64,000 nt of DNA from Notolepis coatsorum (lineage: Eukaryota > Chordata > Actinopteri > Aulopiformes > Paralepididae): NCBI GenBank assembly GCA_963971535.1, contig OZ020592.1, positions 50,487,529 to 50,551,528 on the forward strand, written 5' to 3'. Positions 1,405-50,000 of this stretch are shown here, piece by piece (within the stretch, counting starts at the first letter, position 1; each line of letters begins with the position of its first letter). The translations under genes were made by a program, and so were the position numbers. Under the pieces are notes generated by a model. That model searched no databases. It worked only from the letters and a program-made list of their open reading frames with translations, and was not told the origin of the DNA.

Positions 1405-2140
1405 ACTAGCCGTTTTGCTCCTTATGTCGTACTCAGGTCCCAACGCATGACATAAAAGCAAAATGGCAGCCGTGTGAATATGGTCCATGGCGGGTGGTGC
1501 CCCGGCCTCTCCTCTCCACTGCCCTCAGCTCCTCTCACTCGACGCTCTGGGAAGGAGGGAGGTGTGGAGGAACTGGGGGTGGCAAGCCACACGGGACGTC
1601 TCGCGGCCACATTACCACAGCCTCCGACATAGTTCGCTCACTACACATTCCACGCATCACTAGGAGCCGAGAGAGTCCCTGCGGGGTTTGAGGAAATGTT
1701 TTCACGTGACGTCAGTCGGGCAACATGTGTGGCTGATTTGAAGGAGAGGAAGGTCCCGCTTGACATCAATTAGCCACTGCGTCGCACTTTTTAACGGGTT
1801 ACAAACGAGGCAGTCAAAACACAGGTGGACGGAGGGGAAGGGTGGAAGAAGGTATTATTCAAAACACATGGGCTGCAGCCACCGCACAGCTCAACGGTGG
1901 GATGAATCACTTGTTCTACATGAGAGGTTCTGCAGCGTCTTCTAAACCACACAGGGTTTCAATCATCTTTTCTTTCCCTTTTCTTTTTTATATAATATCA
2001 ATTGATTACTAAGAATATAATCTAATACATCTCATATATAATCTAATACTAGGATTAAAGCTTGTTCTAAAGCAATGTCTCATTGAGGCACTTTCTCACT
2101 AATAGTTCACTTGCAGGACTCTCTTTCTCTCTCACCCTGG
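1405..2140. other. Unassigned sequence
   Basis: No repeat ends, RNA gene or recognisable protein found. The part near 1440-1690 is fairly GC-rich and holds short frames on both strands with no family signature. Confidence 0.3.
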
Positions 2141-2768
2141 CTAGCTCCCTGTCTCCCCCCAACCCTCTCTCTCTCCCCCCAACCCCCTCTCTCTCGCTCT
2201 CTCTCTCTCTCTCTTGGCCTAATCACCGTCTCAGTGCTAGAAGAGTGAAAACATCAGAGGGGTCGCGCCCCGGAGACAACAGAACGAGACATGTTCTGTA
2301 CAGTGGAAGCGGGCGCGGAGGGACGGAGGCCAAGCGGCCCCGGACCGCCAAGAAATGCAGGGGAGGCTTCCTGCCCCGGATCCTCGGGTTGGGAACACGC
2401 GGTATCCCGTATCCCACTCCCATCCCCCTCCCCCACCCCCGACCCCCAGGGAGCCAAGAGACGACTTTCGGCGCTGGAGTCAGGGAGCGTCGAGAGTGGG
2501 GGGAATAACAGAGTGTTCCTACACCCACATACCTCTACTCGGCTCAGCTGGCTCAAATCCTCTCTTGTCCCTGAGTTTTTAATGTCTTCTCTCATCCGCC
2601 GTCTGCAGCGGCAGTGCGTCTGGGTCTCACTCGCTTGGTCACTCGTCTCCGCCTCACTCGTCTCCATTTCATCTAAACTATCTGTCTGTCTGTATGTCTC
2701 TGTTTTGGTTTGTCTTTTGGTCTCCATATTCCTTTGCTCACGCTCTCCCTCCCTCCCTCCCTCCCTCC

Positions 2769-2804
<36 letters not shown>
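2141..2804. repeat. Pyrimidine-rich simple repeats flanking a GC-rich stretch
   Basis: CT-rich tracts lie at about 2141-2215 and (CCCT)n to (CT)n at 2745-2804. The 2220-2560 part between them is GC-rich, which keeps long frames open on both strands (for example 2291-2818 plus and 2254-2727 minus). Those frames are low complexity and show no domain, so I do not call a gene. Confidence 0.6.
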
Positions 2805-2807
<3 letters not shown>

Positions 2808-2819
2808 TCTTGTCCTAGT

Positions 2820-3005
<186 letters not shown>

Positions 3006-3006
<1 letters not shown>

Positions 3007-4680
3007 CTCAGGCGGCTCTGCTTGGAAGCAGCAGTTGCGGTCTGGCCGCCGGTCAGGCAGTGATCCGAGAGGCAAAAAAAAATGACATAACACCATGATT
3101 TGTGTTACAATTTGTTGAATTACAATAAAGTTCCCCAGAGTGACTTTAACCCTGATTCATGTCACCACGTCGGCTGGTTCAAAGCGGCTGGAGGAGGATA
3201 CAGGCTGCAAGGCACAACGAGCTCCAGCCAAGGCCTGAAAATAAAACCAGAGAGTCACCCCGTTAACTCCACCCAAGAACCTCTCTACTATTCTCATAAT
3301 ATGATTATATGAGAGAGAAAACATGTCTCATATATTACCAAGCCTCGTGGAGCCAATTCACACAAATGAGTAAAAAAAAAGGGGGGGGGGGTTGGGGAGT
3401 ATTACGACACGATAGGGATGATAAGGGACATTAGTATTCCCTTATCAGAACCGCTGCTTCACACGGACAGATGGATCTATGGGAAATCCCATGCTTGCTT
3501 CCCAACAGACAGGGGATGGTGTCATGAGGGCCAGGAGGCCTGGGAGCCACAAATCACTCGTCCCAAGTATCGGCCTCCTAAATCCACTGTGATGTTTCGG
3601 CTGCTCCGCGTGAACCTTCACACCGTCTGCCGCTTACACACATGTCCGCCGGGGGTCACCGGGGGTCACCGGGGCTCAGACGAGCCATCTCGCGTCTGAT
3701 TAAATGATGGCGAATGTAAAAAGAAAAAAAAATCTATGTAAAAAGGAGCAAAAATAGGAGCAAACATAAATACCTCTGGGAGAGAGCCAAAGCGAAGGGC
3801 CTGGAGAGCCGGCGGTGTGGGGGCTGGAGGAGGGGAGCGGTCTGCCGGACCGCGGGGGGAAAGCCCCTCCAGGACTGGGACCAGGGCGGAGTAAAGCTCC
3901 GTCTGATGGACTTAGCAGCTCGTAGTAGAACCGGCGGGGAGTGACGGGTCTCTTGGCAGCGCAGCGCAAAATAGTTTGTTTGGGTCTGTTTGCGTCCCAC
4001 CAGATGGGAAACGAGCCGGACCAATGTTCTCCAGAGGTCCCGGGGGAGTCGGGGGGCCCTGGAGGGAGGGGGGACACTCTGCCAGAATGCCATGCCTGCC
4101 TGGCACAGTGAGGGGGCCCTGGGCCTGGACACGCACGCACACACACACACAGTCACACACGTGCGCCTCATGCTAACAAACATATCCATACAATATATCA
4201 TATAGATCTAAGAGAACAGGATGCACCACTACACTCAGTACTGGAACGGAATAAGGCTGAACCCTCAAGTGTTGTGCTGCTACAAGCTGCCTTTCCACGA
4301 TGGGAATAATCAGATAAAAAAGCAAACAAGCTTGATGTAATGACTAATAGCCCCTTCACTATTTTTGTGGGTACCATGTACTGAAATGTCCACGCCAAGT
4401 CCCGTCTGTTTCCATGACAATAATGTCCAAGAAAGGTGATTAGTCAGCGACGCGTACGAGCGTCTTTTATCTGATAATTCCCACAGTCGCTCATATACTG
4501 TACATACTGTACATGATGGGTTGAACGAGACGCAGAAACTTAACCGCGGACAGAATGAACGTGGACATGGGTTGATGGGGAGAGTAATGGAATGCGCGTT
4601 TTCTTGACCTCAAAAGTAGAGGACGACGTGACAAATGCCTCGATAACAATCCTGAGAAAGTTACTCATGAAGGTTTAAAG
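3006..4680. other. Unassigned, mostly single-copy sequence
   Basis: No transposon end, RNA gene or convincing coding region seen. There is a short duplication of gggggtcacc near 3653-3675, a poly-G run near 3380-3390, and GC-rich sequence at 3780-4130 that leaves shadow frames open on the minus strand. Confidence 0.3.
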
Positions 4681-7875: not shown

Positions 7876-9802
7876 CTCTTTAATGTCGGATGTGCGTTCG
7901 CGTGGATCTTACGGGTGCGGGTCAAGCGCTAGAAGATGGAGGTCAAGGTGTGGGACATTAGGCTCGTTGTTGGGGTCAAAGCGGGGCTCGGGGTCGCGAT
8001 CTCGGCCAGGGGTAATCAAAGACACAAGCTCAACTCAAACGGAGAGCGTAGGTATCTTAAGAATGAGGACAATAAAACTGGAAAAGACCTCGGCAGACGG
8101 ATAAGGTGACACTTAATAATGACTCAGTAGTGGCATCAAGGGTCGTCTTTAGGCCCCTGTGTCACAAACCTGGCGTCAGAACGGATCAAAGAGGGCGTCC
8201 CGGCGGCCCGCCACATTAAGACACACGTTCTCTGCAAACGTCCCGGGTTTGAGTCCAGCCTAAAGACCTTTTGTCAACAACGCCAGAAATCTAAAAAGGG
8301 TGCATCAAAGGAAGAATTCCCTTGAACTCTTCCCACTCCGTGTCGTGGGAGTTCCCGCACCAATCACTCCCGGCTCTTATATAGAGGAATCCTGGCCCGC
8401 GCTATTCCCCCCCGGGAGCACCTGGCTGTCAGGGCTCTGTACATATGGTCTCGTCTCCTCCAGGTGTACCCGAACCATCACAACGACTCTCCTCCTCTCT
8501 GAACTCCCACTCCACTCGCCCCCCCCCCCTGGGGGGAGACAATTTATGAGGCTCACACTTTATCCACTTTATTCTACGCACTCCCTCTTCCTCCCCGAGT
8601 TTGATCCTTCCACCTGAGCTTCATTATCCCGAACCCCCCAATGCGTTTATGACCATGTACCGTACGTACCTCTTGTACTGTATCTTGTTTAGTTTTTCCC
8701 CCCGACCGGGGGTCCATAGATCAAGAGATCAGAGTGGAACCAGCGAATCGTGGGGGTAAAGGAGGGTCTTCTCGTCTTTGTTGCATCTTCACCGTTTGCA
8801 GGAGGTCGCTAGATGTCACCTGTCACGCGTACGCATGACATACTGCTGCGCTTTTCATCTTCGCGCTTCCACTACCCCGGGAGAGTGCGCGTTACATATT
8901 TCCTCTGAACGTGAGTGTTATTTATTTTGGGTTGAGTACAGGACTACAGTATTGCGCTCAAATAAAGAGCAGCCCAGGATGTTAGATCTAACCCGCAGGG
9001 CACAAATCATTCCTATTTATATGCACCTATATTTCTCCTCTGAGACTGTAAACAACTCAACTCTATACAAAATCCCAGATACAACTAAGAAAAAACAGTT
9101 ACTCCCTTGCCAACAACCCCCTAGATCAGCTAAGTGAAGGGTTTATAAACTTCATCTGGCTGGGGGAAAAATTGAATTTTGCTTTCCATTATTAATAACA
9201 ATAACCATATTTCCATCCAAATGTCAAGAGAACTTCAAGCAAACCTTTATAATAAAAAGAAAAGATGAATTAAGTGCGTTTCAGTTGGGTTGAGGCGAAT
9301 ACATGTTCTACCAGACCATGGAACATATAGCAACATCAGAAAGAACATACATGAAAAACGTATGCTTTACTTTCTAGGGTTGACTATTACTGGGCGGGTT
9401 CTTTCATGTCAGCTATTAGGCCATTTCTTGCTATTGAGAACAAGATAAATGCGGAGAAGTGAAACGGGCAACATTCTGATGTCCAAACCAATGGGCGTCT
9501 TACAGGGGAGACTGGGGGTGAGTGTACTTGTGTTTTTATGCATTATTATGCCGTAGTGTATGTGAGAAGACTGACATAGACCCGTGGTTAGTGTGGTTGC
9601 TCCCAACATGACCTTTTAGAGGTGGGAATCTTTGGTAATGTCATGATTTGATTTGAGTTTTTTGGGGCCATGATACGATTTCAAATTGATTCTCGATTTG
9701 TTGTGATTATTTAGGCAATTCAATATATTCTAGATGGGTAGCAAGCCCTGCTTGGACCTAGTAAACCAGTAGCCGGTAGATCACTCCTGTTAATTTATCT
9801 GG
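7876..9802. other. Unassigned sequence
   Basis: No gene recognised. Around 9610-9745 there is AT-rich sequence with repeated catgat/gatttg motifs. The short frames (7859-8104, 8300-8617, 8778-9137) have no known motif, and the GC-rich 8100-8750 part gives only shadow frames. Confidence 0.3.
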
Positions 9803-10002
9803 CTAGTCCCTAACCATGTAGTCTATATATCTAGTCCCTAACCATGTAGTCCAGGGCTATTCAACTGGCGGCCCGCGGGCCAGATCCGGCCCGCGGGATG
9901 ATTCTGACCGGCCCGCCAAAGATTACATGATAATAAAAAAAAAAAAAAAAAAAAAAAATTTTAATATTTTTTTTTTTAACTTTTTTTAACTTTTTTCTTT
10001 TC

Positions 10003-10539
10003 ATGTCAACGTTAACACGCACAATTGAGCCAAAAGTCACTCAATTAATGACAGATTTCATTGATAAATTGAGGGAAAACTTTGCAAGTCGATTTGATGA
10101 ATTTGACATGTCCAGAGAATTGATGCATTTTGTGAGCAACCCATTTGCCAATGTAGCTGCTATTTCCACAAAAGGACAAGAGTTCCTTGCATCACTTCAC
10201 ATTGATGAAGGTCTCCTGCAACTTGAAATAATTGACATGCAAGCATCATCTGCTCTGAAGCAGGCACTTGAGAATGAATCCACCACAACATTTTGGATAA
10301 AGTGTATTCATGTCAAGACATTCCCCAAAATAAAAACGCTGGCAATATCTGTGCTAACAATGTTTGGCTCAACATACACCTGTGAATCCAGTTTCTCTCA
10401 CATGAATGCCATTAAAACAAGCAACCATGCCTCCTTGACAAATGAGCATTTGCATCACTGTTTGCGGGTAGCCCTCACTTCCTATGAACCCTCTTTCTCT
10501 GCCATTGCCCAGTCAAAGAAGTGCAATCGCTCTCATTAG
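10003..10539 (+). CDS. hAT transposase C-terminal fragment (dimerisation domain)
   Basis: A 178-codon frame from ATG 10003 to TAG. The second half has the hAT-family C-terminal dimerisation signature: a conserved small/hydrophobic run before FGSTYTCESSFSHMNAIK (about residues 124-141), followed by LTNEHLHHCLRVAL (about 147-160). The zinc-finger N-terminus and most of the RNase-H-like catalytic core (DDE residues) are missing, so it cannot be an active transposase. The frame is uninterrupted, which fits a young deletion derivative. If expressed, the product could only dimerise with full-length transposase of the same family; that role is inference. A homopolymer A/T tract just upstream (9939-9990) marks the likely deletion junction. 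Confidence 0.8.
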   Translation: MSTLTRTIEPKVTQLMTDFIDKLRENFASRFDEFDMSRELMHFVSNPFANVAAISTKGQEFLASLHIDEGLLQLEIIDMQASSALKQALENESTTTFWIKCIHVKTFPKIKTLAISVLTMFGSTYTCESSFSHMNAIKTSNHASLTNEHLHHCLRVALTSYEPSFSAIAQSKKCNRSH

Positions 10540-10903
10540 ATGTGTGTATGTAGGCTAGGCCTGTCTGCCCCCCACCCCCCTGATGTTTGAGAGTTAAGAG
10601 TCGACAATAAGTGCTAATAAGATGCCGTGATTTGCTGTTGTTGCACAGACATGAAGCACTTTTTCATAAGCTCAGCTGCACTATAAATGTGTTTTTTTGT
10701 TCAAGTGTTGATGTTAGAATGTTCAGATGCACATCATGCACTTGTTTGTTTTTTATTTTATTTTTATATTGAAATGTTGAAGAGGAGATGTTGCAGTTGT
10801 TGCACAGTCATAAATGAAGCACTTTTTGCAGGAGATGTTGCAGATGTGGCACATAAATGAAGCACTTTTTTTGAAAAGTATACTACTTTTGCAATGTAGT
10901 TAA

Positions 10904-11312
10904 AGGGGAACTATCTTATAAATGGCCTTTTTCAGTGTTTAGCATTGTTTCCTAGCTATGTGGACTTATATTAATATGATTCATTCTAATTCTCATATTG
11001 GCGCATTCTTCCAATTCTCCTCTCACAATATTCACCCTCACTGAACTGAAATCTGAAAATGTGCTGATTTGTGATGTCAGAGAGACACCGCTGCATGATA
11101 ATCAGCTGAGTTTCCACACAGTTCCCACTGTGGTTGGAGCCCAGGCTCAAAACGGCTTAAGATCTTGAGGTAGAAAAATGCTGTTTTTGAGTACTTGATT
11201 AGAAATACAAAACAATGAATTAAAAAAAAATTATTACAGAGGTGTTCCATAAACCCACAGGAATTGTGTAAAAGTGCCCAAATAGTGAAAGAAATAGTAA
11301 AATAGTTCCCCT
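10904..11312. mobile_element. TTAA-flanked MITE nested in the hAT element
   Basis: The ends are AGGGGAACTAT and ATAGTTCCCCT, an exact 11-bp inverted repeat, and both sides are flanked by TTAA (10900-10903 and 11313-11316). That pattern is typical of piggyBac-like or Kolobok-like non-autonomous elements. It is 409 bp without a coding frame. A related fragment occurs in the opposite orientation near 46885-46942, sharing the gctaggaaacaatgctaaac core. Confidence 0.82.
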
Positions 11313-12602
11313 TTAAATAAAAGTTGTGAAAATGTGGTTGCGTGTTGTGTCAAGTGTACATATATTCATAGCACGGGGAGGCGCCGTGGCAGTCCGGCCC
11401 CTGGCCCCTTGGGTTTCTGACAATGTGGCCCCCTGAACAATTTAGTTGAATAGCCCTGATGTAGTCTATATGTCTAGCCCCTAACCATGTAGTCTATATA
11501 TCTAGTCCCTAACCATGTAGTCTATATATCTAGTCCCTAACCATGTAGTCTATACATCTAGTCCCTAACCATGTAGTCTATATATCTAGTCCCTAACCAT
11601 GTAGTCTATATGTCTAGTCTCTAACCATGTAGTCTATATGTCTAGTCCCTAACCATGTAGTCTATATATCTAGTCCCTAACCATGTAGTCTATATGTCTA
11701 GTCCCTAACCATGTAGTCTATATGTCTAGTCTCTAACCATGTAGTCTATACATCTAGTCCCTAACCATGTAGTCTATACATCTAGTCCCTAACCATGTAG
11801 TCTATATGTCTAGTCCCTAACCATGTAGTCTATATATCTAGTCCCTAACCATGTAGTCTATATGTCTAGTCCCTAACCATGTAGTCTATATATCTAGTCC
11901 CTAACCATGTAGTCTATATGTCTAGTCTCTAACAATGTAGTATATACATATAGTCTCTAACCATGTAGTCTATATGTCTAGTCCCTAACCATGTAGTATA
12001 TATGTCTAGTCTCTAACCATGTAGTCTATATGTCTCTAACCATGTAGTCTATACATCTAGTCCCTAACCATGTAGTCTATATGTCTCTAACCATGTAGTC
12101 TATACATCTAGTCCCTATTAGTCTATATATCTAGTCCCTAACCATGTAGTCTATATGTCTCTAACCATGTAGTCTATACATCTAGTCCCTAACCATGTAG
12201 TCTATATATCTAGTCCCTAACCATGTAGTCTATATATCTAGTCTCTAACCATGTAGTCTATATATCTAGTCCCTAACCATGTAGTCTATATATCTAGTCC
12301 CTAACCATGCAGTCTATATATCTAGTCCCTAACCATGTAGTCTATATGTCTAGTCCCTAACCATGCAGTCTATATATCTAGTCCCTAACCATGTAGTCTA
12401 TATATCTCTAACCATGTAGTCTATATATCTAGTCACTAACCATGTAGTCTATATGTCCCTAACCATGTAGTCTATATATCTCTAACCATGTAGTCTATAT
12501 ATCTAGTCCCTAACCATGTAGTCTATATGTCCCTAACCATGTAGTCTATATGTCTCTAACCATGTAGTCTATATATCTAGTCTCTAACCATGTAGTCTAT
12601 AT

Positions 12603-13220
12603 CAGTGGTTCCCAAAGTCGGGGTCGCGACCCAAAGGTGGGCCGCGAGCAGCCACGGGTGGGCCGCGAGATGATTTAAAAAAAATAAAAAAAAAATAAAA
12701 AAAAAATAAAATATATATTTTTTATTTTTTATTTTTTTATTTTTTATTTTTTTATTTTAATTTTTTTTGTCAGGCCATTGAACTTAGAAGCAGGCCAGGA
12801 CAGTGTTTCTAGTTGTATTCTAAAATTCTATTCTATTGTATTCTAAAATGTGACTATATGGTTTTATATTAACTTAATAAATAAACAAAAACAAAAAATC
12901 TACTTATTTCAACGAACATTTCAAACTAAATAACAGATTATGCACATAAAACGCTGAAAACAACCGAAGCAACAATAGTATTTTAATGAGGCTATTATTA
13001 TTATCATTATTATTTTGCAACAAGTTAGCCCTCTCATAAATAGCACATATAAATGAATAACTAACTTGAACTAACTTAATAGGATTGAAGTGATATTTGG
13101 CTTAAAAAATCGGTCGCATGGCAAAAAAAAAAAAAAAAAAAGCCAGACGATGTGCATTGGGCCGCGGCTCTCTGACGCCTTATTTTCTGGGCCCCGGCCT
13201 GAAAAGTTTGGGAACCCCTG
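12603..13220 (+). mobile_element. 618-bp hAT MITE, copy A
   Basis: It begins CAGTGGTTCCCAAAGTCGGG and ends AGTTTGGGAACCCCTG, typical hAT ends. Long A/T homopolymer tracts lie at 12675-12770. It has no transposase frame. The left flank is gtctatat (12595-12602) and the right flank is gtatagac (13221-13228), which do not match each other directly. Each instead matches the reverse complement of the opposite flank of copy B, the pattern expected after an inversion between the two copies. Confidence 0.93.
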
Positions 13221-13638
13221 GTATAGACTACATGGTCAGGGACTAGATGTATAGACTACATGGTTAGGGACTAGATATATAGACTACATAGTTAGGGACT
13301 AGATATATAGACTACATGGTTAGATACTAGACATATAGACTACATAGTTAGGGACTAGACATATAGACTACATGGTTAGAGACTAGATATATAGACTACA
13401 TGGTTAGGGACTAGACATATAGACTACATGGTTAGAGACTAGATATATAGACTACATGGTTAGGGACTAGACATATAGACTACATGGTTAGAGACTAGAC
13501 ATATAGACTACATGGTTAGAGACTAGACATATAGACTACATGGTTAGAGACTAGATATATAGACTACATGGTTAGAGATATATAGACTACATGGTTAGGG
13601 ACATATAGCCTACATGGTTAGGGACTAGACATATAGAC
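13221..13638 (-). repeat. 28-bp array in inverted orientation
   Basis: The same unit as 9803-12602, but as its reverse complement (atagactacatggttaggga). It is exactly bounded by the two inverted hAT copies, about 15 units long. The orientation changes precisely at the element ends. Confidence 0.95.
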
Positions 13639-14256
13639 CAGGGGTTCCCAAACTTTTCAGGCCGGGGCCCAGAAAATAAGGCGTCAGAGAGCCGCGGCCC
13701 AATGCACATCGTCTGGCTTTTTTTTTTTTTTTTTTTGCCATGCGACCGATTTTTTAAGCCAAATATCACTTCAATCCTATTAAGTTAGTTCAAGTTAGTT
13801 ATTCATTTATATGTGCTATTTATGAGAGGGCTAACTTGTTGCAAAATAATAATGATAATAATAATAGCCTCATTAAAATACTATTGTTGCTTCGGTTGTT
13901 TTCAGCGTTTTATGTGCATAATCTGTTATTTAGTTTGAAATGTTCGTTGAAATAAGTAGATTTTTTGTTTTTGTTTATTTATTAAGTTAATATAAAACCA
14001 TATAGTCACATTTTAGAATACAATAGAATAGAATTTTAGAATACAACTAGAAACACTGTCCTGGCCTGCTTCTAAGTTCAATGGCCTGACAAAAAAAATT
14101 AAAATAAAAAAATAAAAAATAAAAAAATAAAAAATAAAAAATATATATTTTATTTTTTTTTTATTTATTTTTTTTTTTTTTTAAATCATCTCGCGGCCCA
14201 CCCGTGGCTGCTCGCGGCCCACCTTTGGGTCGCGACCCCGACTTTGGGAACCACTG
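13639..14256 (-). mobile_element. 618-bp hAT MITE, copy B (inverted)
   Basis: The reverse complement of copy A over its whole length, apart from small differences in the A/T tracts. It begins CAGGGGTTCCCAAACTTTTC and ends CTTTGGGAACCACTG. The left flank is atatagac (13631-13638) and the right flank gtctatac (14257-14264). With copy A it forms a 618-bp stem around a 418-bp inverted array segment. Confidence 0.93.
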
Positions 14257-14463
14257 GTCTATACATCTAGTCCCTAACCATGTAGTCTATATGTCTAGTC
14301 TCTAACCATGTAGTCTATATAACTAGTCCCTAACCATGTAGTCTATATGTCCCTAACCATGTAGTCTATACATCTAGTCCCTAACCATGTAGTATATACA
14401 TCTAGTCCCTAACCATGTAGTCTATATGTCTAGTCTCTAACCATGTAGTATATGTCTAGTCCC
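14257..14463 (+). repeat. 28-bp array, distal part, original orientation
   Basis: About seven units in the same orientation as 11459-12602, ending at the single-copy sequence after 14463. Confidence 0.92.
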
Positions 14464-15209
14464 TAGAGCACCGATTCTTGGAAATCAATACGTTTTATTT
14501 CACCAGTGATGTTTGAGCGACATAGCAACAACAAGCAAGCGTGGGCAGAGCCTACATTTTGTATGTATGTATGTACACAATTGAACCCTTCACACATTTC
14601 AAAAGAAGAAGTTAAACTTTCTATACATGGAGCTGGGGACACGCCAGAAAAACGTGAAAAAAAAAGATTTGCAACACAGACCAACCAAATACACAACCAA
14701 AAACCCCCGCACACACTTTTCATTCCCTCACCTACTCCCTAAAAACCCATTCCTCTAACCTTCTCTCATCCCACACACACTGACACCAAAGTGCACACGG
14801 CATGATTGACAGGCAGGGGGAGGGTCGCCCCCTCCCCAGGAGCTTCCTTGACTGGTTCAGTGATTCTCAGATGTTTTTGAGAGAACAACCGCAGAGCAAA
14901 GCGTCTGGGCCAGACACTGATACCATCTAGGAATATTTTTGACATACTATACCAAATTAATTGCACATGGCAATTTATCAAAATGTTGGTTTTAGTATTC
15001 GGAAGAATCATTCCACGCTGTTGCAATCGGAATAAACCTTCAGCTTGGCATAGCTCTGGGAACAGCAGCGAGATGCATGACCTTGGTTTGACCTCTAAGC
15101 TCAACTTTGACCCAGAGGAAGTAGTAAATAAAATAACCTGCTGTCGTTAAGCCATTGAGTTCCTACAGTAGGGTGAGTTTGACGTGCAATCCCACAATGC
15201 CACTGGTAA
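14464..15209. other. Unassigned sequence
   Basis: No gene or element ends recognised. Two overlapping frames on opposite strands (14463-14742) have no known motif and no codon signal I would trust. Confidence 0.3.
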
Positions 15210-15221
15210 AGCCCTTTTAAA

Positions 15222-18140
15222 TTGGCCATTTTGAATAATTCTGATACTGTGCCCTACACCTCGGCGGGACGCCCAATGGTGCCCCTGGCTGTAAGCTCTG
15301 TCCACTTTAAGCCTATCACTGTCACTGAAGTCAGTAAAGTCCTGAAAGACATAGACTATAAAAAGTCAGCAGGTCCGGACAACCTACACCCAGTCCTCCT
15401 AAAGACAGCTGCTGATTTTATTGCTGAGCCCATTGCCTCAATTTTAATCTTAGTTTTGTGACTAGTACCATCCCCAAAGTGTGGAAGTCTGCTTTTGTCC
15501 TTCCATTATTAAAAAGTGGGGACCCCTCAGATGTTAATAATTATCGCCCCATTTCTAAGCTCCCTGTCCTGGCCAAAGTTTTTGAATCCTTTGTGAACAT
15601 TCAACTAAAGCAATTCCTATTAGAAAATAACATCAGTCAGTTCAGTCAGGCTTCAGGTCTGGTCATGGTACCATAACTGCAGCTATGCTAGTGGCTAATG
15701 ACATAATCAACACACTTGACAATAAACAACATTGTGCAGCATTGTTTGTTGATTTATCAAAAGCATTTGACTCCGTAGACCACAAACTATTACTGGATAG
15801 ACTGGACAACATTGGCATTGGACAGGAAGCGGTAAATTGGTTCAGAAATTACCTCTCAGACAGAACACAATGTATATTTGCAGAGAACTACAAATCAAGT
15901 TTTTTAGAAATCAACAAAGGTGTTCCCCAAGGGTCTATTTTGGCTCCGGTTTTATTCTCTATTTTTATAAATGACCTGGGGAAAAAAATCCAGACAGCCA
16001 AGATGCATCTTTATGCGGACGATACAATCCTGTATACAAGTGCTCCCTCCCTTACTCAGGTGATTGAGAACCTCCAGGCTGCGTTTAATTGTTTTCAAAC
16101 CTCCCTTTTTGATCTTAAACTAGTTTTAAATGCAAAGAAAACTAAATCTGTTACGAAGGATCAGATTAAACCGAATATATATATTTATTGATTGATATAT
16201 ATTGCATAATATTTGTATATCGTTTGATATCCCTTGTGTATTCCTTGTACATATACACGGAATATCCCTTTAGCCTAGTACAGACCATAATATTTCGTTC
16301 TCCTATTGGACAGCGGTCCCTTGGGCGCCATTGCCATACCTCCAAGGTCTGGTTCAAAGTCACCGCCAAAGACATGCCTGGGCATGAACGGTTCTGCGCA
16401 AGGATATGAGACAGGAATAAAGCTGGTACTAGTTTGTTCACCTAACGTATAAATACGGCGCAGGTGAATACAGAAGTAGAGTTACCCAATAAGTTGAAGC
16501 CTCACCCACGATACAACGTGCGGTGAAGTATGGCCTGTTTGGCCCCAAATAGAGCATTGAGACTGCGTGCGAATTAATAACTGAAGTATCAGAGTTTAAC
16601 GCTGTACCGTCGAGTTCGACCTATTCTATTAAGTCAGTAATATCTATTAAGTCAGTCTATTTATGTATAGTGTATCGTGCGGCTACCGTTCTACAGTGAC
16701 CAGCATCACCAACGTTTCCTCGTACCAGCTAGTGTGCTTATCCAGGCTGGGCTGCTTACCCTGGCGCTTTCACCCGAGGGGCCCTAGACGAGGACCGTGT
16801 GGATCATGTACACTGGATAACCTACCGACGACTGCATAGCCCTTTTCGGCTGGATTATATTTGCTTTTGGTCCTGTAATTGATGGAGCGGAGAATCGCCT
16901 ACACCCACAATTGTGTGGGATTTACCCTGTGAGGAGCCACGTCGAGCCCGCCTCTCAGAAGCCTGAGGCCGGCTAGCTTTCTTCCATGCGGAGCTGCATG
17001 CTACGGAGAACAGCTGTATTCGTCTGCGGATCAAGATATTATTGCACTGTCTCCTGTACTTGGAGTCTCTTTATCATCGTTGACCCAGACTCTACTACCG
17101 ACAAATCCTCTCCCCTTGCTGGCTTACGACCGGAGGGACCCTACCAGTATCTCCCGCTATATTACCAGAGTACCATAGATATAATTCCTAAGATTCAGGT
17201 TGTATTATTATCTCCTGCGTAACATGAGAATGGACATACGCTATTGATTTGCCTACGCACATTCCTTTACCTTATAAGCGCATCCAAAGTAAAGTATATT
17301 ATGTACTATCATTGCTGCTAATAAATACTTAAATTCAGTTTTGTGTGGAACCGAGTCATTGTGGGAAGTGTTCATCATAAGATACCTGTGTACTGTATGG
17401 CCAGTAGTAATGTACATAAGACAGTAGTGGTTTAATGATACCATACTTATTAATACAGTCAGGGAATTGTACCCCTCAGTTACAAAATCCATGATGTTCA
17501 CAAGGGCTCGCTCACAGCCAGTGAATCATGTTCATATCGTTACGCTAAAGGGAGCAACCATAGAAAATGTTTCATCCTACAAGTATCTTGGGCTATGGCT
17601 GGATGAAAAGCTATCTTTTAAAGTGCATATTGGAAACCTCACAAAGAAACTTAAACTAAAACTTGGTTTTTTCTTTCGCAACAAACGATGCTTTTCTTTT
17701 GAGGCCAGAAAGAAACTTGTTCAAGCCACATTCCTGTCTGTAAGTCTATCATGCTTCTCTGCGCTTCATCACTAGTGCCAAAGGGCTTACTCACCATTGT
17801 GTGCTTTACCAAATGGTAGGATGGACCTCTCTGTACGTACGGAGGAAATCCCACATGTTTGTTTTTATATATAAGGCCATCATAGGGAAGCTTCCCCTAT
17901 ATCTTTCCAACCTAATTAGCTTTGCCTCTAGCAGCTACCATACCAGGTCCACAAGATGGCTACTTTTTAAAAAAAACGAGAATAAACACTGAACTAGGAA
18001 GAACAGCTTTTTCAAGCTTCGCACCTTGGGCATGGAATGGGCTACAGGACCATATCCACTTAGATACCCTGGTCTCCCTCTGCGAGTTTAGGTCTGTATT
18101 ACATAACTTCCTACAGGAAGAGTGTCGCTGCTTTCTCTAG
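15222..18140 (+). pseudogene. LINE reverse transcriptase, broken
   Basis: Non-LTR reverse transcriptase in at least five pieces. 15222-15461 carries KSAGPDNLHP. 15458-15676 carries NNYRPIS. 15685-16148 carries the palm motifs LFVDLSKAFDSVDH, NKGVPQGSILAPVLF and the catalytic YADD (near 16012-16024). The part after the solo LTR (17490-17775) holds SSYKYLGLWLD, and 17783-18140 the C-terminal PWAWNGLQ region. Frames change at about 15458 and 15677, with further breaks near 17775 and 17990. The endonuclease is absent. The clade call (L2/CR1 rather than Rex1) rests on motif style and the 3' tail. It is not functional. Confidence 0.85.
16149..17484 (+). mobile_element. Solo LTR of a BEL/Pao retrotransposon
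   Basis: It begins TGTTACGAAGGATCAGATTA and ends CCCCTCAGTTACA, matching the ends and overall layout of the complete BEL LTRs at 28009 and 36560, but clearly diverged from them in sequence. It is 1336 bp against about 1400. The 5-bp flanks aaatc (16144-16148 and 17485-17489) are identical, so this is a solo LTR left by recombination of a complete insertion. It disrupts the LINE reverse transcriptase just after the palm domain. Confidence 0.92.
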
Positions 18141-28008: not shown

Positions 28009-29412
28009 TGTTGTGAAGGATCAGATTAAACCGAATATGTATATTTATTTATATATATATATTTAATTGTATTTGTATATCGTTTGATATCCCCTGTATA
28101 TTCCTTGTACAATATGCATTGAATATCCCCGTTTCTACTAAACAGCCCATAATAGTTTCATTCTACCATTGGACGAGAACCTGGCGCCAGGTTGCCATAC
28201 CCCTAGGTCCAAGTTCAATCGTGCCGCCTAACATGTCGAGGCAACCCCCGGTTCCGCGCAGTAATATGTCGGGCGAAATACGAATGGTACTATTTGTTCA
28301 TAGCGCATATATATATGGCGCCAGTAAAGTAGAACTTTCTTTTAGTCCAGTTCTTTACCCTCCAACAGAGTGACAGACGCAAAAGCCTCCCCACGACGCA
28401 CGTGCGGTGTAGTAAGGCCTACTTGGCCCAGAATAGGCATTGAGATATCGTGTAGATTAATAGTTGAATGGTCATAGTTTGGCACCATACCGTCGAGTTG
28501 GACGTATTCTATTAAGCTAATAGTAGTCTATTTATGTATGGTGCATCGTTCGGTTAGAGTTCTACAGTTATCAGTACCCCCATCGTTCCTGACGTTATCT
28601 GGACGCTTAACCAGGCTGGTCAGACCCCTAGTGGTGATTGCATCCGAGGAGCTCCGGGCCAAGAGCGACTGGACCTGTATATTGGATTACTCTACCCAGA
28701 CGACGGCGAGCCTTCCACGGCTTGGATTATGCTTTGTGTGCTTTGATTATTCCATGGATAAAGGCCAACACTGCTGAGTGTTGGAATTACCCCCCGGAGA
28801 GGACTCCAGGTGAGACGGCGCTCTACACGTGAGGTCGCCTCACGTCTCTCCGTTGTGGACCGGCAGATACCGTTCCACAGAGGGTCCAGCTGTATTCGTC
28901 TGCGGCCCGAGGTTCTGTGGGCACCGTGTCCAAGACTTTGGATACTCCCTCAAGACACCGTCGGCCAGATGGGATACCGCCAGCGGCTTCTCTAACCCCC
29001 CCCCTCCTACTGTCTTACAACCAGCGGGACCCCCCCCCCCCCCTTAGTGTATCCAGCTATAATCATCTAAGTACCATCGCTATCGTTTCCTAAATATTCC
29101 AGGTTGTATACTTACTCCCTGCGCAACCAGAGATTGGACATTCAATGTTGATTTACCTACGAATACTCATTTGCCATAAAAGTGCATATTCCATATTTCA
29201 AATCATAAATGTAATTAAGTGATCGTTGTATACACCCTTTGCTGTATTAAACCTTCGATTTGGTACATTTGTGTTGGTTCGTTTCATCAGGTGGGAAAGT
29301 GTTCATCATACTTATATCTTGTACTGGGTGGCCAGAAGTTAAAGTACATGAGGTAGTGGTATTAAATATCATATCTAACAATACAGTCAGGGAATTGTAC
29401 CCCTCAGTTACA
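28009..29412 (+). repeat. BEL 5' LTR
   Basis: 1404 bp, starting TGTTGTGAAGGATCAG and ending CCCCTCAGTTACA (TG...CA). Contains tatatatatgg near 28308 as a possible TATA box and a poly-C tract near 29029-29043. It differs from the 3' LTR at, for example, 28531 (aatagtag versus agtagtag), 28592 (gacgtt versus ggcgtt), 28701 (cgacgg versus tgacgg) and 28945-28955 (a 4-bp indel with an adjacent substitution). Confidence 0.96.
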
Positions 29413-36559: not shown

Positions 36560-37959
36560 TGTTGTGAAGGATCAGATTAAACCGAATATGTATATTTATT
36601 TATATATATATATTTAATTGTATTTGTATATCGTTTGATATCCCCTGTATATTCCTTGTACAATATGCATTGAATATCCCCGTTTCTACTAAACAGCCCA
36701 TAATAGTTTCATTCTACCATTGGACGAGAACCTGGCGCCAGGTTGCCATACCCCTAGGTCCAAGTTCAATCGTGCCGCCTAACATGTCGAGGCAACCCCC
36801 GGTTCCGCGCAGTAATATGTCGGGCGAAATACGAATGGTACTATTTGTTCATAGCGCATATATATATGGCGCCAGTAAAGTAGAACTTTCTTTTAGTCCA
36901 GTTCTTTACCCTCCAACAGAGTGACAGACGCAAAAGCCTCCCCACGACGCACGTGCGGTGTAGTAAGGCCTACTTGGCCCAGAATAGGCATTGAGATATC
37001 GTGTAGATTAATAGTTGAATGGTCATAGTTTGGCACCATACCGTCGAGTTGGACGTATTCTATTAAGCTAGTAGTAGTCTATTTATGTATGGTGCATCGT
37101 TCGGTTAGAGTTCTACAGTTATCAGTACCCCCATCGTTCCTGGCGTTATCTGGACGCTTAACCAGGCTGGTCAGACCCCTAGTGGTGATTGCATCCGAGG
37201 AGCTCCGGGCCAAGAGCGACTGGACCTGTATATTGGATTACTCTACCCAGATGACGGCGAGCCTTCCACGGCTTGGATTATGCTTTGTGTGCTTTGATTA
37301 TTCCATGGATAAAGGCCAACACTGCTGAGTGTTGGAATTACCCCCCGGAGAGGACTCCAGGTGAGACGGCGCTCTACACGTGAGGTCGCCTCACGTCTCT
37401 CCGTTGTGGACCGGCAGATACCGTTCCACAGAGGGTCCAGCTGTATTCGTCTGCGGCCCGAGGTTCTGTGGGCACCGTGTCCAAGACTTTGGATTCTCCC
37501 AAGACACCGTCGGCCAGATGGGATACCGCCAGCGGCTTCTCTAACCCCCCCCCTCCTACTGTCTTACAACCAGCGGGAACCCCCCCCCCCTTAGTGTATC
37601 CAGCTATAATCATCTAAGTACCATCGCTATCGTTTCCTAAATATTCCAGGTTGTATACTTACTCCCTGCGCAACCAGAGATTGGACATTCAATGTTGATT
37701 TACCTACGAATACTCATTTGCCATAAAAGTGCATATTCCATATTTCAAATCATAAATGTAATTAAGTGATCGTTGTATACACCCTTTGCTGTATTAAACC
37801 TTCGATTTGGTACATTTGTGTTGGTTCGTTTCATCAGGTGGGAAAGTGTTCATCATACTTATATCTTGTACTGGGTGGCCAGAAGTTAAAGTACATGAGG
37901 TAGTGGTATTAAATATCATATCTAACAATACAGTCAGGGAATTGTACCCCTCAGTTACA
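36560..37959 (+). repeat. BEL 3' LTR
   Basis: 1400 bp, nearly identical to the 5' LTR, starting TGTTGTGAAGGATCAG and ending CCCCTCAGTTACA. Followed by the ttctt duplication at 37960-37964. Confidence 0.96.
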
Positions 37960-46058: not shown

Positions 46059-46340
46059 TTTGGCCTGACCCCGCCCATAAGCGCTTTGAGTGACAGTTAC
46101 CCACAGTCTGCGACTGGCAGACAGAGAGACAGAGAGAGAGATCGAGAGATAGAGGAGGGGGATAATAATAAATGTCACCGCGGGGGGGGCATAATCCCAC
46201 GGGACAATGCTGTTTCAAATGACAGTATATACCCCTGTGAATATGATTGCACGGATCGGAATACGGGCGCGTGCATGGGAGTCAAAGATATTTTGACAGT
46301 GATATGAGAGTGCTTCCAGGGAGAAGCCCCACCCCGCGCA
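46059..46340. other. Unassigned sequence
   Basis: GA-rich stretch at 46120-46160 and nothing recognisable. Confidence 0.3.
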
Positions 46341-46562
46341 CCGGTCGAGGTTGTGTGTAAAATGCGTGTGTGCTTCCCCGCGCGCGCCAGTCGAGGTTGT
46401 GTGTAATATGCGTGTGTGATTCCCCGCGCGCCGGTCGAGGTCGTGTGTAAAATGCGTGTGTGCTTCCCCGCGCGCCGGTCGAGGTTGTGTGTAAAATGTG
46501 TGTGTGATTCCCCGCACGCCGGTCGAGGTTGTGTGTAAAATGCATGTGTGCTTCCCTGAGAG
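46341..46562. repeat. 44-bp GC-rich minisatellite
   Basis: Five tandem units of 43-47 bp starting ccggtcgaggttgtgtgtaa and ending tgcttccccgcgcg. About three further units occur in the duplicated segment at 48667. Reading frames across it on the minus strand are artefacts of a unit near a multiple of three. Confidence 0.88.
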
Positions 46563-47929: not shown

Positions 47930-50000
47930 CATTTTGTTCATGGCTCTGATACCAATACACCCTGTTTTAGCCTGGTATAGCCTGATATCTGATACCAATA
48001 CATTCAGTTTTAGCCTGGTATCAGCCCCATATCTGATACCAATACACCCTGTTTTAGCCTGGTATAAGCCTGATATCTGATACCAATACACCCCATTTTA
48101 GCTTGATATCGCCTGATATCTGATACTGTACCACTACACCCTGTTTTAGCCTGGTATCAGCCCCATATCTGATACCAATACATTATGTTTTAGCCTTGTA
48201 TCAGCCCGATATCTGATACTGTACCAATACACCCTGTTTTGCCTGGTATCAGCCCCAAATTTGATACCAATACATTCTGTTTTAGCCTGGTATCAGCCCC
48301 ATATCTGATACCACTACACCCTGTTTTAGCCTGGTATCAGCCCCATATCTGATACCACTACACCCTGTTTTAGCCTGGTATCAGCCCCATATCTGATACC
48401 ACTACACCCTGTTTTAGCCTGGTTTTAGCCCCATATCTGATACCACTACACCCTCTTTTAGCCTGGTATCAGCCTGATATCTGATACCACTACACTCTGT
48501 TTTAGCCTGGTATCAGCCCGATATCTGATACTGTACCACACTACACCCTGTTTTAGCCTGGTATCAGCCCCATATCTGATACCAATACACCCTGTTTAGC
48601 CTGGTATCAGCCTGATATCTGATACCAATACACCCTGTTTTAGCCTGGTATCAGCCCCATATCTGATACCAATACACCCTGTGTGCTTCCCCGCGCGCCT
48701 GTCAAAGTTGTGTGTAAAATGCGCGTGTGATTCCCCGCGCGCCGGTCAAAGTTGTGTGTAAAATGCATGTGTGCTTCCCCGCGTGCCGGTCGAGGTTGTG
48801 TGTAAAATGCATGTGTGCTTCCCCGAGAGAGAGAAGCTCCTGTCCCTCTCTCTCTCTCCCTCTCTCTCTCCCTCTCTATTTCTCTCTCTCCCTCTCTCTC
48901 GCTCGCTCGTTCTCTGCTGTCTGTCGGCACCCTCTGTTTGAGGAAGTAATTCCACTCGCTCTGTTGTTGAGCGAATTGTTGATTGTGGGCGGTGACTACA
49001 ACCAGTGCCTTATTCACGTCAGCAAAACAGTCAAATCAGAATGGCTTAGTTGAGTGAGGGAAGATCTCGTGAACTCGAGACTAGACTGATGAGTTAAAAT
49101 GATAATTAGAGACACAGACCACGTTGATATAATCACCCATTGCTAGGAAACAATGCTAAACACTGGAAAATCTGATACCAATACATTCAGTTTTAGCTTG
49201 GTATCAGCCCCATATCAGATACCAATACACCCTGTTTTAGCCTGATATCGCCTGATATCTGATACTGTACCACTACACCCTGTTTTAGCCTGGTATCAGC
49301 CCCATATTCATTCATTCATATTCATTAATTCATTAATTCATTCATTCATTCATTCATATCTGATACCAATACATTCTGTTTTAGCCTGGTATCAGCCCGA
49401 TATCTGATACTGTACCAATACACCCTGTTTTAGCCTGGTATCAGCCCCAAATCTGATACCAATACATTCTGTTTTAGCCTGGTATCAGCCCCATATCTGA
49501 TACCACTACACCCTGTTTTAGCCTGGTATCAGCCCCATATCTGATACCACTACACCCTGTTTTAGCCTGGTATCAGCCCCATATCTGATACCACTACACC
49601 CTCTTTTAGCCTGGTATCAGCCCGATATCTGATACCACTACACCCTGTTTTAGCCTGGTATCAGCCCGATATCTGATACTGTACCACACTACACCCTGTT
49701 TTAGCCTGGTATCAGCCCCATATCTGATACCACTACACCCTGTTTTAGCCTGGTATCAGCCCCATATCTGATACCAATACACCCTGTTTTAGCCTGGTAT
49801 CAGCCTGATATCTGATACCAATACACCCTGTTTTAGCCTGGTATCAGCCCCATATCTGATACCACTACACCCTGTTTTAGCCTGGTATCAGCCCCATGTC
49901 TGATACCAATACACCCTGTTTTAGCCTGGTATCAGCCTGATATCTGATACCAATACACCCTGTTTTAGCCTGGTATCAGCCCCATATCTGATACCAGCAC
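47930..50000 (+). repeat. 44-bp hairpin-forming minisatellite
   Basis: Tandem 44-bp units: ctgatacca, an 18-bp spacer (atacaccctgttttagcc), tggtatcag, then ccccatat. The first and third blocks are exact 9-bp inverted repeats, so each unit can fold into a stem-loop. About 35 units, with variants (ctgatactgtaccac, a 16-bp shorter unit near 48100). The array is interrupted by the duplicated segment 48667-49170 and by a short (attc)n stretch at 49308-49357. Confidence 0.93.
48667..49170 (+). repeat. Segment duplicated from 46353-46920 (copy 2), inside the array
   Basis: Starts inside a 44-bp unit (after caatacaccctgt) and ends at cactggaaaa, where the array resumes with tctgatacca. Contains fewer minisatellite units than copy 1 but the same CT stretch and downstream sequence with few substitutions. 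No transposon ends or target duplication, so a recombination-based or replication-based duplication is likely. Confidence 0.88.

What the first reader, a model, noticed from the sequence alone, without database searches (positions are those of the whole stretch)
12603..14256. Inversion of a satellite segment between two inverted hAT copies, with exchanged target duplications
Two 618-bp hAT copies lie in opposite orientation, and the 28-bp array is inverted exactly between them and in normal orientation outside. The flanks fit an inversion: copy A has gtctatat on its left, whose reverse complement (atatagac) lies left of copy B; copy B has gtctatac on its right, whose reverse complement (gtatagac) lies right of copy A. 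So each element's two target duplications are now split across the inversion. The two 8-mers differ at only one base and both are common in the array, so the orientation switch is the stronger evidence and the flank exchange is supportive.
Basis: partly seen in the sequence, partly recalled or inferred. Interest (0 to 1): 0.78.

Follow-up and report, generated by a model that had tools for sequence, protein, structure and literature searches.

The report
Transposon-flanked micro-inversion inside a minisatellite
A short stretch of repeated DNA has been flipped between two near-identical copies of a small jumping element, and the marks each element leaves on its target suggest how the flip happened; it is a clean small example of a known kind of genome rearrangement.

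Summary
Two 618-bp non-autonomous hAT copies, A (12603-13220, +) and B (13639-14256, -), differ at 2 positions. The 28-bp array is reversed exactly between them (13221-13638) and normal outside. The 8-bp flanks are exchanged: A5'=B3'=GTCTATAT, A3'=B5'=GTATAGAC. Controls agree: 29 of 38 other genomic copies have intact direct 8-bp duplications, all nnnTAnnn, and a third hAT in the same array (9852-11458) keeps ATGTAGTC on both sides and array orientation across it. An in-place inversion is well supported.

Hybrid element insertion (one insertion; [quoted passage not shown] A and B are the closest of 780 copy pairs, and a 79-nt A/T-tract fingerprint matches the 3.42-Gb assembly (up to 2 mismatches) only at A and B. 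I rate hybrid insertion slightly above ectopic recombination; sequence alone cannot separate them. New member of a known kind (Galileo 2z3; Ac/Ds alternative transposition).

The parts
9852..11458 (+). A different hAT element (CAGGGCTATTCAACT...AGTTGAATAGCCCTG) in the same array with a direct duplication ATGTAGTC at 9844-9851 and 11459-11466: internal control for a plain insertion
   Evidence: Sequence; 28 direct and 0 inverted shared 12-mers across it; remnant of the hAT dimerisation domain, PF05699, E 7.7e-05, 22.8 bits against a cut-off of 21.4
11459..12602 (+). 28-bp minisatellite, forward orientation, left arm
   Evidence: Tandem Repeats Finder; unit listing
12595..12602 (+). GTCTATAT, 5' flank of A (first target duplication, t1)
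12603..13220 (+). hAT copy A, 618 bp, non-autonomous
   Evidence: longest stop-to-stop frame touching it 65 aa
13221..13228 (-). GTATAGAC, reverse complement of the duplication right of B (T)
13221..13638 (-). Inverted 418-bp minisatellite segment
13631..13638 (-). ATATAGAC, reverse complement of t1
13639..14256 (-). hAT copy B, 618 bp, two mismatches to A
14257..14264 (+). GTCTATAC (second target duplication, T)
14257..14466 (+). 28-bp minisatellite, forward orientation, right arm
   Evidence: to 14465; units

Best explanation
A 402-418 bp piece of a 28-bp minisatellite was inverted in place by a hAT element of the Buster target type. Most likely it was one aberrant transposition (hybrid element insertion). 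One element sat in the array between GTCTATAT duplications. After replication, transposase paired the 5' end of the element on one sister chromatid with the 3' end on the other, and inserted this hybrid into a nearby GTCTATAC site of the same array. The product is left array - t1 - A - T' - reversed array - t1' - B - T - right array, with two identical copies and exchanged duplications. Shown: the structure, the exact flanks, the phase at both joints, the family's nnnTAnnn target rule in the copies examined, the near-identity of A and B and their shared private tract. Inferred: the sister-chromatid step, and the choice of hybrid insertion over flipping between two pre-existing copies.
For: A script of the hybrid insertion gives all 3008 bases of 11459-14466 except two, at 14167 and 14174. 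A and B are the closest of 780 pairs among 40 copies: 2 differing columns, next pair 3, median 36. The 79-nt fingerprint (element positions 94-172) matches two places in the assembly at up to 2 mismatches, A and B. 29 of 38 other copies have exact direct 8-bp duplications; read by eye from that table, all 29 have TA at positions 4-5, as have t1 and T. The published test between the models is that copies are identical under hybrid insertion and chimeric under ectopic recombination (PMC2775673, section 10 part 1 of 2). hAT elements of maize are reported to do sister-chromatid and reversed-ends transposition (PMC3744419, passages).
Against: A and B are not fully identical (2 substitutions in the A-rich tract), so later mutation or slippage is needed. 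Ectopic recombination reproduces the sequence with 0 mismatches at each of three crossover points tried, with parental copies chosen to fit. A 2021 maize paper gives non-identical, inverted inner duplications as the mark of ectopic recombination as against reversed-ends transposition (PMC8225341, passages), which is what is seen here. Close inverted copies can be homogenised by gene conversion (recalled). Sharing of the fingerprint between unlinked loci is rare but real: 2 of the other 779 pairs have edit distance 0 and 4 have 2 or less. Array-context statistics across the joints are not significant. Sister-chromatid transposition in maize is reported to give bridges, inverted duplications and deletions, not this product.
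Confidence: 0.48

Rival explanations
1. Ectopic (non-allelic homologous) recombination, or an equivalent template switch, between two copies that already lay in opposite orientation in the array, the second one a local hop of the first, a sibling insertion from the same source, or homogenised with it. It may still flip back and forth.
For: Exact exchange of duplications; the product fits with no mismatch for each of three crossover points tried. It is the mechanism concluded for the Galileo inversions with the same signature, proposed for hAT-MITE inversions in cod, and its stated mark, inner duplications inverted and non-identical (PMC8225341, passages), is met. Arms of 631 nt 408 nt apart are a good substrate.
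Against: Needs an extra step. Two copies of the family differ at a median of 36 columns, so a local hop, a sibling insertion or conversion must be added to explain the shared private tract. Chimerism, its positive mark, cannot be tested with two differences 7 bp apart.
Confidence: 0.4
2. The whole A-array-B block moved as a composite transposon from a reverse-oriented array into this one.
For: Both outer sites lie at the same phase of the unit and match at seven bases of eight; one changed base would make them equal.
Against: The outer duplications should be equal and are not (T versus C at the eighth base), whereas the exchanged pairs match 8 of 8. No second close pair was seen among the 40 scored copies (of 777 candidates). 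The search for the reversed segment elsewhere did not complete, so a donor array is not excluded.
Confidence: 0.05
3. Assembly error: the segment between two near-identical inverted repeats was turned by the assembler.
For: Inverted repeats are a known trap (recalled). No reads were available.
Against: The structure spans only 1.65 kb; the window has no N and lies in a 137-Mb contig. A misorientation at identical repeats would itself require two inverted copies with these flanks.
Confidence: 0.05

Closest known systems
Drosophila buzzatii inversion 2z3 made by Galileo (PMC2775673)
   Same: Two copies of one DNA transposon in opposite orientation at the two breakpoints with exchanged target duplications, there GTACTAT and GTACTAC, which also differ at one base (passages and section 10 part 1 of 2).
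   Different: A polymorphic chromosomal inversion between gene regions, P superfamily with 7-bp duplications, copies shown to be chimeric, non-inverted chromosomes sequenced. Here 418 bp inside an array, hAT with 8-bp duplications, copies near-identical, no alternative allele seen.
Maize Ac/Ds alternative transposition (sister-chromatid and reversed-ends; PMC3744419, PMC8225341)
   Same: A hAT transposase joins ends of different copies; reversed-ends events leave inversions with 8-bp duplications (passages).
   Different: Reversed-ends inversions start from two elements in direct orientation and leave a newly made duplication; here complete copies sit at both ends with both duplications split.
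P-element hybrid element insertion (Gray et al. 1996, seen only as citations; model described in PMC2775673 passages)
   Same: One site, two sister or homologous copies, hybrid ends inserting at a new site, inversion flanked by two copies.
   Different: P element, Drosophila; the original paper was not read.
Atlantic cod inversions with hAT-derived MITEs at breakpoints (PMC12368964)
   Same: hAT MITEs in inverted arrangement linked to inversions in a fish (outline and passages).
   Different: Large-scale inversions and tandem MITE clusters; no target-duplication exchange described in the main text (0 occurrences of 'TSD' or 'target site duplication').

Membership tests
hAT superfamily, Buster target type | 8-bp target duplication with consensus nnnTAnnn | tested here: met
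   29 of 38 other copies have an exact 8-bp duplication; all 29 have TA at positions 4-5 (read by eye). Consensus from PMC3517528 (passages).
hAT superfamily, Buster target type | Short terminal inverted repeats | tested here: met
   CAGTGGTTCCCAAA and CAGGGGTTCCCAAA at the two ends of A and of B.
hAT superfamily, Buster target type | Transposase falling in the Buster clade | not testable with these tools
   Non-autonomous; longest stop-to-stop frame touching A is 65 aa. No autonomous partner was sought.
Ectopic-recombination inversion | Two copies in opposite orientation at the breakpoints with exchanged duplications | tested here: met
Ectopic-recombination inversion | Chimeric copies | tested here: inconclusive
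   Only two differences, element positions 83 and 90.
Ectopic-recombination inversion | Parental, non-inverted arrangement known | tested here: inconclusive
   The right flank 14466-15300 has one full-length match in the assembly among 40 scored of 51 candidates, so no second allele was found.
Hybrid element insertion | The two copies are identical | tested here: inconclusive
   2 of 618 positions differ; closest of 780 pairs; shared private tract.
Hybrid element insertion | New target nearby, with its own duplication and the family's target rule | tested here: met
   GTCTATAC, TA at positions 4-5, at the far end of the 418-bp segment. Ectopic recombination meets this too.

The most novel reading that the evidence does not exclude
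A single hAT insertion in a large animal-like genome inverted its own neighbourhood by hybrid element insertion between sister chromatids, caught at sub-kilobase scale because the minisatellite supplies both many equivalent targets and a polarity marker. Minisatellites full of hAT sites would then be natural recorders of aberrant transposition, and such micro-inversions would be under-counted because repeats hide them.
Probability: 0.4. Interest if true: 0.5.

Novelty: new member of a known kind. Interest (0 to 1): 0.36.

Why it matters
It is a compact, base-exact record of a transposon-made inversion, with a control insertion in the same array. It shows that exchanged target duplications, a signature used for ectopic recombination, are also what a one-step hybrid insertion predicts (a point already made in PMC2775673), and that a hypervariable internal tract can help to tell the two apart. 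The array's orientation makes such events searchable in any long-read genome.

Tried and rejected
Composite transposon: judged unlikely because the outer duplications differ. Simple reversed-ends transposition within one chromatid: not preferred because the published model starts from directly oriented elements and gives a new duplication. Inverted duplication by template switching from a single copy: judged unlikely because both copies are complete and the switch would have to fall exactly at the element end; what looks like such a duplication in another copy of this family (L066, C4624) has its joint inside the element.

Array-context test: adjacent 23-bp short units occur only at three places, units 36-37, 39-40 and 43-44 (0-based) of the turned-back 65-unit array, two left of the first joint (unit 42) and one just right of it, which looks like restored continuity. 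The formal test gave shuffle p 0.67, 0.18, 0.44, 0.15 and 0.14 for 2, 3, 4, 5 and 6 units; rotations at least as good were 7, 2, 5, 0 and 0 of 13; the reversed unit order always scored lower. I do not count this as evidence. An earlier version timed out.

Genome search for the inverted segment itself, to find other arrays or alleles, did not complete. Junction patterns match over a thousand places each at up to 2 mismatches and do not separate the two arrangements. Only 40 of 777 candidate copies were scored, so statements about the family rest on these 40, the best-scoring ones. Nine of the 38 other copies lack an exact duplication under my cut-off (29 of 38 have it); some show partial or shifted ones; none was dropped from the counts. 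The pair counts use a MAFFT alignment whose A/T tract is hard to align.

Full report
What is there. The window lies in a 3.42-Gb assembly of 4787 contigs, on C24, a 137-Mb contig. A 28-bp minisatellite runs from about 9800 to 14466 and is broken by three hAT elements. The first (9852-11458) is a different hAT with a remnant dimerisation domain (PF05699). It has a direct duplication ATGTAGTC, and the array keeps its orientation across it. The other two are A and B, 618 bp each, in opposite orientation, with 2 mismatches. Between them the array is reversed.

Flanks. In the element's own orientation A has 5' GTCTATAT and 3' GTATAGAC; B has 5' GTATAGAC and 3' GTCTATAT. So each flank of one element is matched, 8 of 8, by the opposite flank of the other. 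Turning 13221-13638 back and keeping each 8-mer once gives two complete 28-bp units, both of types found elsewhere in the array (8 and 6 other copies). The 8-mers are common (52 and 10 of 62 GTCTATAN sites), so the flank pattern alone carries a factor of about 8 over independent sites.

Controls. Forty copies were scored out of 777 candidates. I compared all 38 besides A and B (loci). Of these 38, 29 have an exact 8-bp direct duplication; all 29 have TA at positions 4-5, read by eye from that table, which is the Buster-type rule (PMC3517528, passages). Ten of the 38 share 6 to 71 direct and 0 inverted 12-mers between their two flanks, that is, the flanks repeat in one orientation; L052 shares 4 direct and 0 inverted. 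Three share inverted 12-mers: L005 (3 direct, 12 inverted), L048 (4 and 5, AT runs) and L056 (0 and 4), all at least 137 bp from the element on both sides. Only A and B have inverted sharing within 9 bp of the element, 52 and 47 inverted and 0 direct.

How it arose. Two histories give this sequence. In ectopic recombination two inverted copies exist first and the segment between them flips. [quoted passage not shown] A script of each was compared with the observed 3008 bases: hybrid insertion with 2 mismatches, both in the A-rich tract of B; recombination with 0 at three crossover points, since parental copies can be chosen freely. The published distinction is that copies are identical under hybrid insertion and chimeric under recombination (PMC2775673, section 10 part 1 of 2). 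Here A and B are identical outside the masked low-complexity stretches, as are A and L003 and several other pairs, so masked identity alone says little. The tract says more: the 79-nt stretch at element positions 94-172 is the same in A and B, and in the whole assembly it occurs, with up to 2 mismatches, only there. Among the other 779 pairs of the 40 copies, 2 have edit distance 0 over this stretch (4 have 2 or less); the median over all 780 is 13. So A and B are very probably one lineage: a hybrid insertion, a local hop or sibling insertion followed by a flip, or homogenisation around a flip. I prefer the first because it is one step, at 0.48 against 0.40 for recombination.

Limits. No reads, no second allele (the right flank 14466-15300 has one full-length match among 40 scored of 51 candidates) and no relatives were available. 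The search for the reversed segment elsewhere in the genome did not complete (nine tries, listed in Tried and rejected). A formal test of array continuity across the joints was not significant.

Place among known things. The structure matches the Galileo inversion 2z3 of Drosophila buzzatii in orientation and exchanged duplications; chimerism, shown there, could not be tested here. hAT elements are known for alternative transposition in maize, and hAT-derived MITEs are linked to cod inversions. A search for papers holding 'hybrid element insertion', 'hAT' and 'vertebrate' gave one paper, the Galileo one; this library lacks most subscription journals, so it does not show absence from print. I rate this a new member of a known kind.

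Noticed in passing
window 9852-11458: A third hAT insertion, of another family, in the same minisatellite, with intact ATGTAGTC duplications (TA at positions 4-5) and a remnant hAT dimerisation domain; the array looks like a target hotspot.
   Followed up: yes
L066 (G000:C4624:140000-146000), 2422-3901: Another copy of the family contains an inverted duplication: arms 2422-2658 and 3146-3382 are 237 nt and 100% complementary, including part of a neighbouring hAT end and the GTCTATAC/GTATAGAC flank; it looks like a recent fold-back template switch.
   Followed up: partly
L003, L004, L007, L028, L032, L039, L042, L047, L049, L051: 10 of the 38 other copies have flanks that repeat each other directly (6 to 71 shared 12-mers), and most of these show tandem repeats (L032 does not), suggesting that this hAT family often lands in minisatellites carrying its TA target.
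   Followed up: partly
L065 (G000:C23:98845500-98852500), 1962-3992: A roughly 2-kb element whose two ends both resemble the 3' end of the 618-bp family (about 85-86% identity) and that is flanked by GTCTATAC on both sides.
   Followed up: no
window 28035-28080 and 36586-36631: The same 18-bp-period repeat with the same consensus and copy number occurs twice 8.55 kb apart, as the long terminal repeats of a retroelement might show.
   Followed up: no
window 47945-49996 and 46332-46556: Two further 44-bp-period arrays of different consensus, the first about 2 kb long.
   Followed up: no
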